DNA from: a virus
Reading direction: 5' to 3' (one strand)
Virus record (IMG/VR): IMGVR_UViG_3300044675_004706
Coordinates: 21,653-85,652 of that record
Length of the DNA stretch: 64,000 nucleotides
In this document: in pieces, positions 1-42,729 of the stretch
Position numbering within the stretch: position 1 is the stretch's first letter
Layout: each line of letters begins with the position of its first letter
Made by a program: the position numbers and the translations under genes
Notes under the pieces: generated by a model
Told to the model about the DNA's origin: nothing
Seen by the model: only the letters and a program-made list of their open reading frames with translations
Database searches by the model: none

Positions 1-735
1 AACTCAAGTACACAAGTGGGATATCACCACACCGTAAGTACCGAGGATAACTTCGTAGGGAAAATGGTTGGGTGACTTGGGAAAGTAGATTCTCAAGTTG
101 AGTTCGGAAGAACGATAAGAATAACCCATAGGAACTCTGTAAGAAATGTGACCATCCAGTTACACTATTGCGGGTCCCAATATGATAGAGGACTTAAAAC
201 CGAAAGGTAAGATGGAGAACGAGTGGTGTCGCTACTATCCCTAAGGAAGACCTACCAAGGTCTCTTTATGAAGTAATCTTGAAATATGGAGGTGGGGACA
301 CTTCACGGAGTAGTTTAGTATTCTGTCGCTCAAAAGGAGACAGAGCTTATGTTGGACCACTACTCTGACACATCTACAACACAACCCTAAAATTATTACA
401 AAATAACAAAGGAAAAGTGTCCATCAGGTTTGAGTGAAAGGTGACTACATAGTAATGAGCCGTTCATTGCATACAGAGACCCCAAGTCAATGTGTATTGT
501 TAAGAAAAACCTTTAGTCCCGCAAGGACGAACTGGGGTGGCAACCTCGGAAAGAGTTAAGTACTGATAGAGTAATTCAAACCTCAAGGAGTGGTACACCT
601 AAAATACCGTCACTAAGAAATACTACCCAAAAGGTGGTGGATACGAAGGGAAACAATAATCCTTCAAAAGTTTCTTAACATAAGCTGTAATCTCAGGCTT
701 TTCTAATCTGACCTGTCAATTGACGGGTTTTTTTA
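1..735 (+). ncRNA. large structured non-coding RNA (5' end outside window)
   Basis: No credible reading frame runs through these 735 bases, which are less AT-rich than the genes around them and full of short perfect helices. AGACCT/AGGTCT closes a four-base loop at 248-263, GTCC/GGAC lies at 516-528, and CTCAA/TTGAG near 93-104. The stretch ends in a terminator hairpin with a T-run at 712-735. Size, ornate structure and a tRNA-rich phage context recall the large phage RNAs GOLLD and ROOL, but I cannot match a consensus by eye, so the class is open. The strand is inferred from the terminator. Confidence 0.6.
712..735 (+). terminator. intrinsic terminator of the large RNA
   Basis: CCTGTCA pairs with TGACGGG and is followed by seven T residues. 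Confidence 0.75.
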
Positions 736-2146: not shown

Positions 2147-3199
2147 ATGAAAAAAATTAAATTATTTCTTTTAACCCTTTTCGCATTCATTGGAATGAGT
2201 GCATCATCACAAGTATTAACGTCTTTTAACGTTGATATAATTAACCTCGGAGGATGTCCATACACATTGTTCGGAAACTATTATGGAGGTGGTATTCAAG
2301 GTAGTATTACTTTAACACAACAACCTACAGGAAGTTATGTTGCAGTTGTACCAGCAATTGATAGTCTAAATGTTAGTATCTGTGCAATTTATACTTCACC
2401 ATGTTTAGGTGAGACTTGTATAAATGAAACAATATATCTTGGGTCAGGACAAGGTGTTCAGACATTTACGATAGTACTTCAAAACCAAGACTCAGATTTT
2501 GATGGGTTCATGGATAACATTGACTGTAATCCATTTGACCCATATATCTATCCAGGGGCACCTGAACTATGTTATGACGGTATTGATAACAACTGTGATG
2601 GTTTAATTGAGGCAATGCCGACAATTGATACTCTGTACTTTGTTCCTGATTCACTTGTATCTGAACCAAACACTATTTACGTGGTTTACCAAGGTTCAAA
2701 TACTGTAGAATGGGAATGGTTTTTTGGAAATGGAGGAAATGGGACGAGTTCAAACGAACAATACCCAACCATTACATTCCCTACCTCAACGTTTACTTCA
2801 CAAATGCTCCCGATTAACTTATACGCAATTTCCATTAATGGTTGTCAGGTTTATACTTCAATAAACTTTTCAATTGATAGTAATGGAGTTTGGACACCGG
2901 GTGGAATTTTAAATGATTATACCTTAAACGTTGTTCCTGAATTTATAATTGGGGTTGAAGAAACAATGACTAATAACGTTAAAGTTTGGCCAAACCCTGT
3001 GTTAGGTATTGTTAATATTAACACACCATCAAATAGTGGAACGTTAAGAGTTATGTCTATCGACGGAAGATGTGTTCACCAAGAAAAATATTTTACTAAC
3101 AACATTCAGTTTGATTCTGAAACATTAAGTAATGGAACTTATGTTATTACTCTTACTGACGATAGTGGTAAGTTTTACACAACAAGAATTATTAAATAA
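2147..3199 (+). CDS. secreted protein with MopE-type metal-binding motif and T9SS type A sorting domain
   Basis: The 350-aa protein starts with a Sec signal peptide (residues 1-22, ending SASSQ). At about 120-155 it has a calcium-type acidic repeat (DSDFDGFMDNIDCNPFD) followed by YPGAPELCYDGIDNNCDG, the MopE-like putative metal-binding signature. The last 75 residues (VWPNP ... GTYVITLTDDSGKFYTTRIIK) match the Por secretion-system C-terminal sorting domain. The protein is therefore predicted to cross the host outer membrane through T9SS. It is monocistronic and flanked by terminators. Its role is unknown; cell-surface modification or adhesion are options. Confidence 0.85.
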   Translation: MKKIKLFLLTLFAFIGMSASSQVLTSFNVDIINLGGCPYTLFGNYYGGGIQGSITLTQQPTGSYVAVVPAIDSLNVSICAIYTSPCLGETCINETIYLGSGQGVQTFTIVLQNQDSDFDGFMDNIDCNPFDPYIYPGAPELCYDGIDNNCDGLIEAMPTIDTLYFVPDSLVSEPNTIYVVYQGSNTVEWEWFFGNGGNGTSSNEQYPTITFPTSTFTSQMLPINLYAISINGCQVYTSINFSIDSNGVWTPGGILNDYTLNVVPEFIIGVEETMTNNVKVWPNPVLGIVNINTPSNSGTLRVMSIDGRCVHQEKYFTNNIQFDSETLSNGTYVITLTDDSGKFYTTRIIK

Positions 3200-3202
3200 T
3201 AA

Positions 3203-3230
3203 AATCCCCCTGAAACATGGGGGATTATAA
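3203..3230 (+). terminator. intrinsic terminator after T9SS cargo gene
   Basis: ATCCCCC/GGGGGAT stem followed by a short T-rich stretch. Confidence 0.7.
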
Positions 3231-3244
3231 TTTTTATATCGGAT

Positions 3245-11075: not shown

Positions 11076-11159
11076 CGAGGTTCTGAATTAACAGGACAAC
11101 CCCCCACCTCCGATATGGCAGTCGGTCCGTTAATCCGACGAAGATGGGGTTTTTTATAA
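11076..11159 (+). other. structured spacer, terminator-like hairpin between tRNAs
   Basis: AACCCC near 11098 can pair with GGGGTT at about 11146-11152, just before a T-run. Two smaller hairpins (CCGATATGGCAGTCGG and GTCCGTTAATCCGAC) lie inside. It may terminate or process the upstream tRNA transcript. Confidence 0.45.
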
Positions 11160-11232: not shown

Positions 11233-11310
11233 CCTGGTGTCTCGGTAAGCTCTGACGAAAGTCAACTACGAGGTCTCGGTGGACAGAAGGCCTCTGATTC
11301 CACCCACTTT
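11233..11310 (+). other. structured spacer between tRNA-Gly and tRNA-Asp
   Basis: About 78 bases with a TGAC-GAAA-GTCA tetraloop hairpin and a CAGA/TCTG hairpin. No complete tRNA cloverleaf can be drawn; it could be a decayed tRNA or a processing element. Confidence 0.35.
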
Positions 11311-12293: not shown

Positions 12294-12301
12294 TATCTTT
12301 G
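12294..12301 (+). promoter_or_regulatory. -7 promoter element TATCTTTG before a tRNA-like element
   Basis: It ends four bases before the first base of the tRNA-like element at 12306, so that element should be the 5' end of a transcript. Confidence 0.6.
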
Positions 12302-12305
12302 TCGG

Positions 12306-12420
12306 AGTCAGGTGGGTGTAATGAGGGACGGTCCCAAATCCATAGAGCTAGTGGTTCTCGACACTTGGAGATTCCATTAGAAGTAAGGTTACTTATCCGG
12401 TTCGAGTCCGGCCCTGACTA
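12306..12420 (+). tRNA. hairpin-enlarged tRNA-like element, possibly Arg(TCT)
   Basis: 115 bases. The acceptor AGTCAGG/CCTGACT and T arm CCGG-TTCGAGT-CCGG are intact. Between them lie extra hairpins: GGGAC/GTCCC, TGGA/TCCA and AAGTAA/TTACTT. AGTG-GTTCTCGA-CACT could be an anticodon arm with an 8-base loop holding TCT. It may be a functional tRNA with insertions or a decayed one. Confidence 0.5.
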
Positions 12421-12616
12421 CAAACGTGTTGTTCCCTTGAGAAAGGAGGTATTGATAAAAAAGGAAGTTGTTAAAAGTAACAATATGCTTACAACACAGA
12501 GGACTTCTCATCCTCAACTATTAGTGAACTTTGGTACCCGTACTGAGGACGTGGGGCTAAGTAAGATACAATTCCGTCATGCAGGGAGTAGAATGCTAAA
12601 GAGCTAATAGTAAAAT
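12421..12616 (+). ncRNA. hairpin-rich non-coding spacer
   Basis: No frame is credible. GTGTTGT near 12425 can pair with ACAACAC near 12493, enclosing TTGTT/AACAA. Its texture matches the structured RNA at 1-735. It probably sits within the same transcript as the flanking tRNA-like elements. Confidence 0.4.
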
Positions 12617-12683
12617 AGTCAGGTAACTCAATTGGCAGAGCTCCTAACAAGGAAGATTGCAGGTTCGAATCCTGTTCTGACTA
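12617..12683 (+). tRNA. tRNA-like element with short anticodon arm
   Basis: 67 bases. Acceptor AGTCAGG/TCTGACT, normal D arm (ACTCAATTGGCAGAGC) and T arm GCAGGTTCGAATCCTGT. The anticodon arm is only TCCT-AACA-AGGA, about five bases short of canonical, so no anticodon can be assigned. Confidence 0.5.
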
Positions 12684-12901
12684 CACGTTCTGACTAATCA
12701 TCAGATAGTATGTCCCATACGATGAGAAATGGTATGATAACCATAGGGAAGAGTTGAAGGTTTGTATATATATTACCTTCTAGTTGACTACTAAGGTCGG
12801 TAAAACCCATCACGAAGGGGAGCAAGACAGTTTATTCCTAACTCAGCAATGAGGACAGCCATAACACCTGTAAGTTGGATAGATAAGGGTGTTTTAACAT
12901 A
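12684..12901 (+). ncRNA. hairpin-rich non-coding spacer
   Basis: Contains GTATG/CATAC, ATGGT/ACCAT, AAGGT/ACCTT and AACACC/GGTGTT hairpins in about 215 bases and no coding frame. Either an unrecognised structured RNA or expanded inter-tRNA spacer. Confidence 0.4.
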
Positions 12902-12982
12902 GGTCAGGTGGCGAATGGTAACGCAGCTCGCGGTGTACACTATAAAGGGGTGACAATGCAGGTTCAAATCCTGTCCTGACTG
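12902..12982 (+). tRNA. tRNA-like element, anticodon uncertain
   Basis: 81 bases with acceptor GGTCAGG/CCTGACT, D arm GCG/CGC around AATGGTAA, and T arm GCAGG-TTCAAAT-CCTGT. The central 33 bases contain GTGTACAC and do not form a standard anticodon arm. Confidence 0.5.
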
Positions 12983-12997
12983 CAAGATTAAATAAGA

Positions 12998-13102
12998 ATG
13001 ACACAGGAACAAATAAAGAATTGGATAGATAGGTGGTCGAAACTAAAACCATCTCCACAAAGAGATATGGTAATTAAGATTTGGTCTAGATTATTGAAAT
13101 AA
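12998..13102 (+). CDS. small basic ORF, 34 aa
   Basis: MTQEQIKNWIDRW followed by a basic tail ending WSRLLK. It lies between two tRNA-like elements and begins like the 101-aa protein at 11977. Whether it is translated is unknown. Confidence 0.4.
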   Translation: MTQEQIKNWIDRWSKLKPSPQRDMVIKIWSRLLK

Positions 13103-13107
13103 AATAT

Positions 13108-13296
13108 AGTCAGGTGGCGGAATGTTAACAACCCCGTTCTAGATGTAAAAACAATGTGGTTAGAATCCACTACGGGGTCAATGTTAACTTGGTAGACGCA
13201 ACAAGTAAGTTAGTAGGATTAAGTTGTTTCTATGATACTCTTAATTCCGAGATGTAAGGGAAATACATCATACAGGTTCGAATCCTGTTCTGATTG
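13108..13296 (+). tRNA. very large tRNA-Leu-like element (189 nt) with D-loop insertion
   Basis: Acceptor AGTCAGG/TCTGATT, a Leu-type D region (TGGCGGAAT ... TTGGTAGACGC) and T arm ACAGGTTCGAATCCTGT. The D loop is split by a 59-base insertion (separate entry). The candidate anticodon arm AACAA/TTGTT has a 19-base loop, and the variable region carries GATGTA/TACATC. Whether it matures to a tRNA is uncertain. Confidence 0.5.
13130..13188 (+). mobile_element. 59-bp hairpin insertion with 9-bp direct repeats
   Basis: AATGTTAAC at 13121-13129 is repeated exactly at 13180-13188. The intervening segment has terminal inverted repeats ACCCCGT/ACGGGGT and, inside, GTGG-TTAGAAT-CCAC, which looks like a T arm. 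It resembles a tiny MITE-like insertion with target duplication, or a nested mini-tRNA. Confidence 0.45.
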
Positions 13297-13560
13297 CAAT
13301 GAGTAAGAGATACTCGGCAAGATTGGCTACATTCTTTAAAAAAGTAGTGGTAGTAAAAAGCCCCCGACCTTAATGGGGAATCGATTCGGGTTAAAGTGAA
13401 GCATATCCGCAGCTCCGACGTATAGGATTGACAGGTTTTTATGTGGTAAGACACTAATGAAAAAGCTAGGTCTGGCGTCGAACCCAGAATAGTGATGGTT
13501 CTCGAAACAGTCAGAGTAACCCGTTAAAATCTACTCACTGTAATCTCAGGTGGGGAACTT
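13297..13560 (+). other. non-coding region with tRNA fragments
   Basis: Contains a T-arm-like TCTGG-CGTCGAAC-CCAGA flanked by CACTA/TAGTG, and a possible 24-codon frame at 13299-13373. No complete RNA gene can be drawn. Confidence 0.35.
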
Positions 13561-13822: not shown

Positions 13823-13910
13823 GGAGAGTAAAGGAGGGAAATGGTGTCCCCGACTGTTTGCTAAACAGTAACCCATTAAGTTGGGCACAGTTCGAGTCTG
13901 TTGCTCTCCT
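13823..13910 (+). tRNA. tRNA-Ser(GCT)
   Basis: Acceptor GGAGAG/CTCTCC; anticodon arm ACTGT-TTGCTAA-ACAGT; variable arm CCCATTAAGTTGGG. Confidence 0.9.
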
Positions 13911-19231: not shown

Positions 19232-19336
19232 ACTCAGGTGGCGGAAGCGAGACTAATGCATTAGTCCGATGGATAGACGCTAGGGTAACCTACCCGAGTC
19301 AGAAATGACGTGAAGGTTCAAGTCCTTCTCTGAGTA
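19232..19336 (+). tRNA. tRNA-Leu-like gene with D-loop hairpin insertion
   Basis: 105 bases. Acceptor ACTCAGG/TCTGAGT, Leu-type D arm and T arm GAAGGTTCAAGTCCTTC are clear. The D loop contains the 16-base palindrome GACTAATGCATTAGTC as an extra hairpin. A variable hairpin GTCAGAAATGAC is present. The anticodon arm is atypical (GGGTA/TACCC), so the anticodon is not assigned. Confidence 0.65.
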
Positions 19337-41667: not shown

Positions 41668-42729
41668 ATGAACGAAGTACTAAACAAATATTTTGAGGAA
41701 GGGTTGGTGTATAAACAAGTACACCCAACTCTTCCTTTGACTATATGGAACTACACTGAAAAGGTTCAGTACGAAGGTTTATGGGATGATGTAACTTTAC
41801 AAACTCGTGGGTTAGTTACCGACGACAAAGGTAATGTTGTTGCTCGTCCATTTAGAAAGTTCTTCAACATAGAAGAGGAAAGACACACCCCAACTTCTGA
41901 GTTTGATGTATACGAAAAGATGGATGGTTCACTTGGTATATTGTTCAACTATGAAGGACAATGGGTGATAGCAACTCGTGGTTCATTTGCTTCTGACCAA
42001 TCATTAAAAGGTTTCTTCATGCTACAAAAGTATGACTTTAAGAAACTTCACAAAGATTACACTTACCTGTTTGAAATAATATATGATGATAACCGTATAG
42101 TTGTTAAGTATGACTATGAGGACTTGGTATTACTTGGTATGATAAATACTGAAACTGGGTATGAGGTTGATTTGTATGGTGAGGGAGTTGATGTTAGATT
42201 AAAGAACATGGTTAACAATCTTGGCTTCAAAGTTGTTAAAAAATACGATGGAATTCGGGATTATACCGAATTGAAGGGTAAAGTTGAACAAAACGCTGAA
42301 GGATTTGTTGTTCGTTTTACTAACGGAGATAGAATGAAAGTTAAGGGTGTGGAGTATCTTCGTCTTCATAAACTTATGACTAATGTATCTACCACTTCTG
42401 TTTGGGAAATGTTGAGTGAGGACAAAGATGTGTTGGAGATATTGAAGGATGTCCCTGACGAATTCTATAAGAAGATAAAGATGTATGTTCAGGAGTTAAG
42501 GTATAACCACTATCAGTTTGGAGAACGTGCTGGTAAGATATATCAGTATTTCAGATATGGTAAATATGGGGACAGAGACCCTGAACCATCAAAGAAAGAG
42601 TTTGCTTTACACTTACAAGAATGTGATACTCACCCAAAGATAAAGGCATTATGCTTTATGATGTGGGATGGAAAGAGTACTGATAAAGCAATATGGAATT
42701 ATTTAAAACCCGAATATAAAAAACTATAA
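41668..42729 (+). CDS. T4 Rnl1-like RNA ligase, 353 aa
   Basis: The nucleotidyl-transfer Lys is in motif I YEKMDGSLGIL (about residue 91). ATRGSF, YTYLFEIIYDDNRIVVKYDY, EGFVVRF and the Lys motif V GDRMKVKGVEYL follow in ligase order. It seals 5'-phosphate and 3'-OH RNA ends, probably repairing cleaved tRNAs. It has its own promoter and no terminator until the TACGTA promoter region. Confidence 0.88.
   Translation: MNEVLNKYFEEGLVYKQVHPTLPLTIWNYTEKVQYEGLWDDVTLQTRGLVTDDKGNVVARPFRKFFNIEEERHTPTSEFDVYEKMDGSLGILFNYEGQWVIATRGSFASDQSLKGFFMLQKYDFKKLHKDYTYLFEIIYDDNRIVVKYDYEDLVLLGMINTETGYEVDLYGEGVDVRLKNMVNNLGFKVVKKYDGIRDYTELKGKVEQNAEGFVVRFTNGDRMKVKGVEYLRLHKLMTNVSTTSVWEMLSEDKDVLEILKDVPDEFYKKIKMYVQELRYNHYQFGERAGKIYQYFRYGKYGDRDPEPSKKEFALHLQECDTHPKIKALCFMMWDGKSTDKAIWNYLKPEYKKL

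What the first reader, a model, noticed from the sequence alone, without database searches (positions are those of the whole stretch)
12306..13296. tRNA-like genes enlarged by inserted hairpins
Elements at 12306 (115 nt), 12902 (81 nt) and 13108 (189 nt), plus a short one at 12617 (67 nt), keep an AGTCAGG- or GGTCAGG-type acceptor and a T arm, but D loop, anticodon arm or variable region are filled with perfect small hairpins or shortened. The nearly shared acceptor implies common ancestry. A promoter ends four bases before the first, so they are transcribed. They may be split or intron-bearing tRNAs, decoys for host anticodon nucleases, or a hairpin-element graveyard.
Basis: seen in the sequence. 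Interest (0 to 1): 0.75.

Follow-up and report, generated by a model that had tools for sequence, protein, structure and literature searches.

The report
Phage tRNA-shelled RNAs with swappable payloads
These are not damaged tRNAs: they belong to an apparently undescribed, widespread family of phage RNA genes that keep the outer shell of a tRNA but replace the anticodon part with a payload that differs from phage to phage and is swapped, whole, at fixed places in the genome.

Summary
In detail: four tRNA-like elements (115, 67, 81, 189 nt) share an AGTCAGG acceptor, lack a normal anticodon arm, and the first has a Bacteroidota-type promoter 4 nt upstream. A fifth (105 nt, compensated acceptor ACTCAGG/TCTGAGT) lies at 19232-19336.

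They are neither split tRNAs nor a graveyard. Shared: acceptor stem, U8, A14, R15-Y48, T arm, A73, encoded C74, usually a tRNA-Leu-like D arm. The anticodon arm and variable loop are replaced by 150-200 unrelated inserts. Insert families are conserved across phages; the best sampled shows compensatory pairs in shell and insert.

At one site, 54 complete elements carry 16 unrelated inserts between flanks about 91% identical; a second site repeats this. Junctions fall at the shell edge. Payloads recur elsewhere at up to 100% identity over 106 nt. The window's own array shows such exchanges.

Best reading: a constant tRNA shell (processing, stability) carrying variable payload RNAs under diversifying selection, probably counter-defence. 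Anatomy and exchange are shown; expression and function are inferred. I found no published description in the open-access library.

The parts
12294..12301 (+). Bacteroidota-type -7 promoter box TATCTTTG, ending 4 nt before E1; predicted transcription start at or next to nucleotide 1 of E1
   Evidence: sequence; same 4-nt spacing in 15 of 356 elements, in four unrelated upstream contexts, and 0 of 697 canonical tRNAs of the same contigs
12306..12420 (+). E1: tRNA-shelled RNA, 115 nt, acceptor AGTCAGG/CCTGACT, A73; D-region hairpin GGGACGGTCCC plus long payload
   Evidence: found in 9 other contigs, always in the shell; D-region hairpin GGnn..nnCC varies by compensation across the wider family
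12617..12683 (+). E2: tRNA-shelled RNA, 67 nt; anticodon arm reduced to UCCU-AACA-AGGA
   Evidence: RF00005 38 bits; insert core present in 24 contigs, each time in the AGTCAGG shell, with D-stem changes such as AACTC/GAGC to AGTTT/AAAC
12902..12982 (+). E3: tRNA-shelled RNA, 81 nt, acceptor GGTCAGG/CCTGACT, G73
   Evidence: RF00005 38 bits; at the same place relatives L026/L264 and L265 carry different elements of 76 and 90 nt
13108..13296 (+). E4: tRNA-shelled RNA, 189 nt, payload plus D-loop insertion
   Evidence: payload shared with 14 contigs; helices with both-sided changes among relatives
13121..13188 (+). D-loop insertion of E4: 50-nt hairpin (13130-13179) between two AATGTTAAC copies (13121-13129, 13180-13188); the hairpin itself looks like an acceptor/T-arm minihelix (ACCCCGT...GTGGTTAGAATCCAC TACGGGGT)
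   Evidence: sequence; absent from E4 homologues L023, L072, L303-L306, L308-L311; present in L250
19232..19336 (+).
   Evidence: 24.9 bits with RF00005, below cut-off; sequence and pairing

Best explanation
The elements are members of a phage RNA family with a constant tRNA shell (acceptor stem, usually a tRNA-Leu-like D arm, T arm, elbow contacts, A73, encoded C74) and a variable structured payload in place of the anticodon arm and variable loop, with the D loop as a second insertion point. Inferred working: the RNA starts at nucleotide 1 from its own promoter or is cut out of a longer transcript by RNase P/RNase Z, receives CCA, and so becomes a stable RNA that uses the host tRNA maturation machinery but cannot decode. 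The payload is the working part: it binds a host or rival target, most likely a component of a defence system. Different payloads are therefore useful against different hosts, kept as discrete alleles, and traded between phages by recombination through the constant shell. Shown: anatomy, prevalence, conservation and covariation, discrete alleles at fixed sites, exchange at shell boundaries, sharing of payloads between genomes. Inferred: processing, CCA addition, stability, target, counter-defence role.
For: Only 9 stretches in 84,980 prokaryote genomes, most from Bacteroidota MAGs. Up to 10 pattern hits per phage record, control pattern 0 in 40 records. Shell: U8 95%, A14 87%, pairs 15-48 A-U 248 and G-C 9 of 318, C74 encoded as in 98.6% of canonical tRNAs of the same phages. 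Functional structure: 10 pairs changed on both sides against 2.6 in shuffles (0 of 500 reach it), at most 3 in slid controls, in shell and insert helices of one family; further both-sided pairs in the E4 family. Exchange: 54 complete elements at one site fall into 16 unrelated alleles with flanks about 91% identical on both sides; L337 and L359 are 98.5% identical upstream, with different inserts between AGTCAGGTGGCGGAA and ACAGGTTCGAATCCTGTCCTGACTA. A second site gives at least 8 alleles in 23 contigs. Payloads recur in other contexts at up to 100% over 106 nt. In the window's own array, positions 3 and 4 hold other elements in relatives.
Against: No RNA data: expression, processing, CCA addition and charging are unproven. 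No target is known; window inserts show no antisense match to their own genome above chance, and no protein family lies next to most elements. The folding stability of inserts is only slightly above shuffles (mean z -0.6). Counter-defence is argued from the pattern of variation alone; superinfection immunity or a selfish cassette would look similar. The acceptor constancy is partly imposed by the search patterns, although insert-only searches confirm it, and elements with other acceptors exist. Sequences are mostly metagenomic contigs.
Confidence: 0.45

Rival explanations
1. Superinfection immunity or exclusion RNAs: each allele blocks co-infecting phages that carry a different or the same allele, comparable in logic to the P4 CI and P1 c4 immunity RNAs (own knowledge).
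For: Discrete alleles at one site with conserved flanks are what an immunity-type locus would show; small processed RNAs are known to serve phage immunity (own knowledge).
Against: Antisense immunity needs a complementary target in the same genome; none above chance for the four window elements, although short loop-loop contacts would be missed. Several different elements sit in one genome.
Confidence: 0.15
2. Selfish cassettes: the payloads spread by recombination through the shell and do nothing for the phage.
For: Exchange at shell boundaries and recurrence of identical payloads in unrelated contexts; E4 D-loop hairpin between 9-bp direct repeats.
Against: Compensatory changes keep payload helices; own promoters with exact spacing; no enzyme or mobility gene travels with them.
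Confidence: 0.13
3. Translation-directed RNAs: leucylated or otherwise charged anticodon-less tRNAs (tmRNA-like logic) that act on ribosomes, EF-Tu or synthetases.
For: tRNA-Leu-like D arm TGGCGGAATTGGTAGACGC and A73 in 91%; bacterial LeuRS does not need the anticodon (own knowledge).
Against: A1-U72 acceptor unlike usual tRNA-Leu; no shared insert core across families; not found by tmRNA models.
Confidence: 0.09
4. Only the shell matters: processing punctuation or a decoy for nucleases that act on tRNA tails, such as Cas12a3, with neutral filler inside.
For: The conserved part (tail, acceptor, T arm) is the part that Cas12a3 engages (PMC12851939); tRNA-like elements can mark cut sites.
Against: Filler would drift; instead payloads are conserved, covary and form discrete alleles shared between phages.
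Confidence: 0.09
5. Degenerate tRNAs, intron-bearing tRNAs or a hairpin graveyard.
For: Odd sizes; nested T-arm-like hairpins in a few inserts (3 observed, 0.17 expected by a strict test).
Against: Conservation, covariation, promoters and hundreds of contigs; no exon pair restores an anticodon arm; relatives without the insertion are still not tRNAs.
Confidence: 0.03

Closest known systems
Canonical bacterial/phage tRNA-Leu
   Same: Acceptor/T arm, Leu-like D arm TGGCGGAATTGGTAGACGC, U8, A14, R15-Y48, A73, encoded C74
   Different: No anticodon arm of 5 bp with 7-nt loop; AGTCAGG acceptor with A1-U72; 54 to about 240 nt; payload variable between phages
tmRNA (ssrA)
   Same: tRNA-like acceptor, D and T parts around a foreign middle in place of the anticodon arm (own knowledge)
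   Different: No tmRNA call by ARAGORN or Rfam; no insert core shared by the family; many alleles per phage group
Plant virus 3' tRNA-like structures
   Same: tRNA mimicry by a virus, altered anticodon region (own knowledge)
   Different: Here separate small RNA genes in phages, several per genome, with exchangeable payloads
T4 species 1 and 2 (RNA C and D) stable RNAs
   Same: Stable non-tRNA RNAs in a phage tRNA cluster (own knowledge)
   Different: Not compared by sequence here; no known constant-shell/variable-payload design or allelic exchange
GOLLD and ROOL RNAs
   Same: Phage RNAs near tRNA arrays, unknown function; GOLLD lies in this window (306-699) and in 10 of 40 element-bearing records; tRNAs can lie in the GOLLD linker (PMC12286853)
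   Different: Giant, with a different architecture
Tenacibaculum phage pT24 tRNA-Undet genes
   Same: 79-nt tRNA-like genes with a hairpin in place of the anticodon arm
   Different: Annotated only as undetermined tRNAs; different acceptor and D arm; membership not established

Membership tests
Canonical tRNA | Acceptor stem and T arm with TTCRA loop | tested here: met
Canonical tRNA | Elbow contacts U8-A14, R15-Y48 | tested here: met
   (family level); U8 in E1-E4
Canonical tRNA | Anticodon arm of 5 bp with 7-nt loop after the D arm | tested here: not met
   E1-E5 not reported by ARAGORN; most family members not, or with inconsistent anticodons
Intron-bearing or split tRNA | The form without the insert is a tRNA, or a known intron class is present | tested here: not met
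   E4 homologues without the D-loop insertion still lack an anticodon arm; no intron family in Rfam scan
tmRNA | Recognised tmRNA gene with tag peptide | tested here: not met
   none in ARAGORN or Rfam scans
tRNA pseudogene | Free drift, loss of pairing in relatives | tested here: not met
   99.5% of cells paired and compensatory changes in one family; conserved E1 and E2 copies
Anti-defence locus | Variable cargo at a fixed, conserved site | tested here: met
Anti-defence locus | Protects phage against a defence system | not testable with these tools
   needs infection assays
Leucine-accepting RNA | Aminoacylation by LeuRS | not testable with these tools
   A73 in 287 of 316 and Leu-like D arm only

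The most novel reading that the evidence does not exclude
A new kind of phage RNA gene: a constant tRNA-derived shell that matures and stabilises a modular, allelically exchanged payload RNA, giving phages a shared, recombining repertoire of RNA effectors against hosts or rivals, analogous to variable anti-defence protein loci but made of RNA.
Probability: 0.5. Interest if true: 0.95.

Novelty: categorically new. Interest (0 to 1): 0.87.

Why it matters
If the reading holds, phages carry a large repertoire of small structured RNAs delivered in a tRNA shell, the natural counterpart of the tRNA scaffold used in biotechnology to stabilise recombinant RNA. It would make RNA effectors as modular and exchangeable as anti-defence proteins, offer 150 or more unrelated structured RNA modules with unknown targets, and explain puzzling undetermined tRNAs in phage genomes. 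An isolated phage with a cultured host (Bacteroides phage BS-TP2) carries a solitary element with the same Leu-type shell and a different acceptor, so it can be tested directly.

Tried and rejected
(1) Homology of the whole array to isolated phages by blastn: none. (2) Chimeric shell query against INPHARED: many ordinary tRNAs, but led to BS-TP2, MW202828, the 735-kb phage LR756501 and pT24. (3) Antisense matches of window inserts to the phage's own 85.6 kb: none above shuffles. (4) A shared protein partner: only lineage-specific neighbours. (5) A common insert core: some enriched words (AGTAAGG, TAARTCC) and T-loop-like hairpins (11 of 158 families, 2.5 expected), no universal core. (6) Terminators just downstream: no clear excess of T runs. 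(7) Encoded C74 as a special feature: rejected, canonical tRNAs of the same phages have it too. (8) A match of the E2 hairpin to the 16S rRNA decoding region (UAACAAGG): judged chance-level from memory and not pursued. (9) Literature: nine searches of the open-access library found no description; most subscription papers are not held.

Full report
Observation. The window is bases 21653-85652 of an IMG/VR virus record of 85,652 bases. Each has a 7-bp acceptor AGTCAGG or GGTCAGG, a T arm with TTCRA, a purine at 73 and an encoded C74. ARAGORN reports 18 ordinary tRNAs in the window, among them the arrays on both sides, but none of these four; Rfam's tRNA model passes for E2 and E3. A T-arm/acceptor pattern finds exactly these four in the record, and its reversed control finds nothing. 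A fifth element, 19232-19336, has the compensated acceptor ACTCAGG/TCTGAGT and a hairpin in the D loop.

A family, not an oddity. A pattern of the T arm plus 3' acceptor gave the maximum of 120 stretches in IMG/VR, and a pattern of the 5' shell likewise. The same 3' pattern found only 9 stretches in 84,980 bacterial and archaeal genomes, most of them Bacteroidota MAG contigs. From the share of independently found matching contigs that one search had listed (19 of 81) I estimate about 500 contigs for that strict pattern alone. The 316 distinct elements first collected have a median length of 105 nt. Forty large records hold up to 10 pattern hits each, while the control pattern finds none. More than a third (55 of 155) have no canonical tRNA within 2 kb, and 306 of 315 are not spanned by a long reading frame.

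The shell. U8 is kept in 95%, A14 in 87%, position 15-48 is A-U in 248 and G-C in 9 of 318 elements, with 9 of 15 G15 facing C48. A73 is present in 287 of 316. C74 is encoded in nearly all, as in 98.6% of canonical tRNAs of the same contigs. The usual D arm, TGGCGGAATTGGTAGACGC, is that of tRNA-Leu (own knowledge of tRNA-Leu sequences). Among elements in these loci that ARAGORN did not call, 263 of 326 with a paired acceptor are of the AGTCAGG class. Part of that excess is imposed by how the loci were found. Four searches with insert sequence only, containing no shell letters, are free of this bias: all tRNA-like hits lay in the shell, with acceptors AGTCAGG or compensated variants (AGTTAGG/CCTAACT, AGTCAGA/TCTGACT) and, in a circular phage from Manatee Spring, AGTGCAG/CTGCACT.

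The payload. Clustering of the middle parts of 320 elements gives about 212 groups; a stricter cut, taking only inserts after a Leu-type D arm, gives 158 families. Within families structure is kept. In the family of L050/L114/MW202828, 10 pairs have changes on both sides against 2.6 in shuffles, and at most 3 in slid controls. The insert helix contributes three of these and the acceptor four. The E4 family shows both-sided changes in two payload hairpins. In the E1 family the D-region hairpin appears as GGGA/TCCC, GGTA/TACC, GGAA/TTCC and GGCA/TGCC. Insert stability against shuffles is only modest (mean z -0.6).

Swapping at fixed sites. Seven contigs with the same upstream sequence and a promoter 4 nt before nucleotide 1 were seen to carry unrelated inserts. 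A search for that promoter junction gave 57 contigs. The 54 complete elements at this site fall into 16 unrelated alleles, several of them identical or nearly identical across 3 to 9 contigs. Flanks of different alleles are about 91% identical over the aligned parts of 400 bases on either side. L337 and L359 are 98.5% identical upstream and match again downstream, yet the middle differs completely, with junctions at AGTCAGGTGGCGGAA and ACAGGTTCGAATCCTGTCCTGACTA. A second element about 60 nt further on is also swapped. A second site, upstream sequence GCCCGTATCTTTG, gives at least 8 alleles in 23 contigs. Payloads from the first site recur in other genomic contexts at up to 100% over 106 nt. 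In the window's own lineage, position 3 holds 81, 76 or 90-nt elements and position 4 holds 189 or 113-nt elements in different relatives, while E2 is constant. The D-loop insertion of E4, absent from most homologues, is a 50-nt hairpin between 9-bp direct repeats.

Transcription. The -7 box TAnnTTTG stands exactly 4 nt before nucleotide 1 in 15 of 356 elements, in four unrelated upstream contexts, and in none of 697 canonical tRNAs of the same contigs. This places the start at or next to nucleotide 1, given the usual position of the Bacteroidota -7 box (own knowledge). It also points to Bacteroidota hosts, as do the MAG hits and the isolate BS-TP2 of Bacteroides salyersiae.

Interpretation. 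A constant shell with discrete, exchanged, structured payloads is what one expects if the shell provides maturation and stability and the payload meets different partners in different hosts or competitors. I favour counter-defence RNAs (0.45 for the whole chain; about 0.9 for the anatomy and exchange). Immunity between phages, selfish cassettes and a translation-directed role remain open. The anticodon-nuclease decoy, intron and graveyard ideas fit badly. A decoy for nucleases that act on tRNA tails, such as Cas12a3 (PMC12851939), would use the conserved part but would not explain conserved payloads.

Limits. There is no RNA evidence. The literature search covered an open-access library without preprints. 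Most sequences are metagenomic contigs without named hosts. The acceptor signature is partly a product of search design, and elements with other acceptors (BS-TP2, LR756501, E5) show the family is wider than AGTCAGG.

Noticed in passing
window 306-699: GOLLD RNA (322 bits); 10 of 40 element-bearing phage records also carry GOLLD, G036 two copies.
   Followed up: partly
window 12421-12616, 12684-12901: Spacers between E1-E2 and E2-E3 fold strongly (-49.7 and -47.7 kcal/mol) with long closing helices; the second is 97-100% conserved in most relatives and may be a further structured RNA.
   Followed up: partly
window 13297-13560: 263-nt G+C-richer region before tRNA-Ser folds to -64.8 kcal/mol; possibly another structured RNA.
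   Followed up: no
window 11077-11159 and 11235-11310: Structured spacers inside the canonical tRNA array.
   Followed up: no
window 13823-13910: Serine-type tRNA-like gene (GGAGAGT...GCTCTCC, 88 nt, GCT in the anticodon position) not reported by ARAGORN.
   Followed up: no
window 41668-42729: T4-type RNA ligase 1 (phrog_562), possibly for tRNA repair.
   Followed up: no
L243:2790-2868 and 3157-3235 (Tenacibaculum phage pT24): Two nearly identical 79-nt tRNA-like genes, annotated tRNA-Undet, with a hairpin in place of the anticodon arm.
   Followed up: partly
L242:2917-3027 (phage LR756501, 735 kb): A 111-nt element with Leu-type D arm, acceptor AGTTAAG/CTTAACT and T73 in a 735-kb phage genome.
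   Followed up: partly
L247:1920-2027 (Bacteroides phage BS-TP2): Solitary 108-nt element, acceptor GGTATCG/CGATACC, between a DUF2303 gene and ninG in an isolated phage with a cultured host.
   Followed up: partly
L378, L379, L382, L383 (second swapped site): An allele that keeps the acceptor but seems to have lost the T arm.
   Followed up: no
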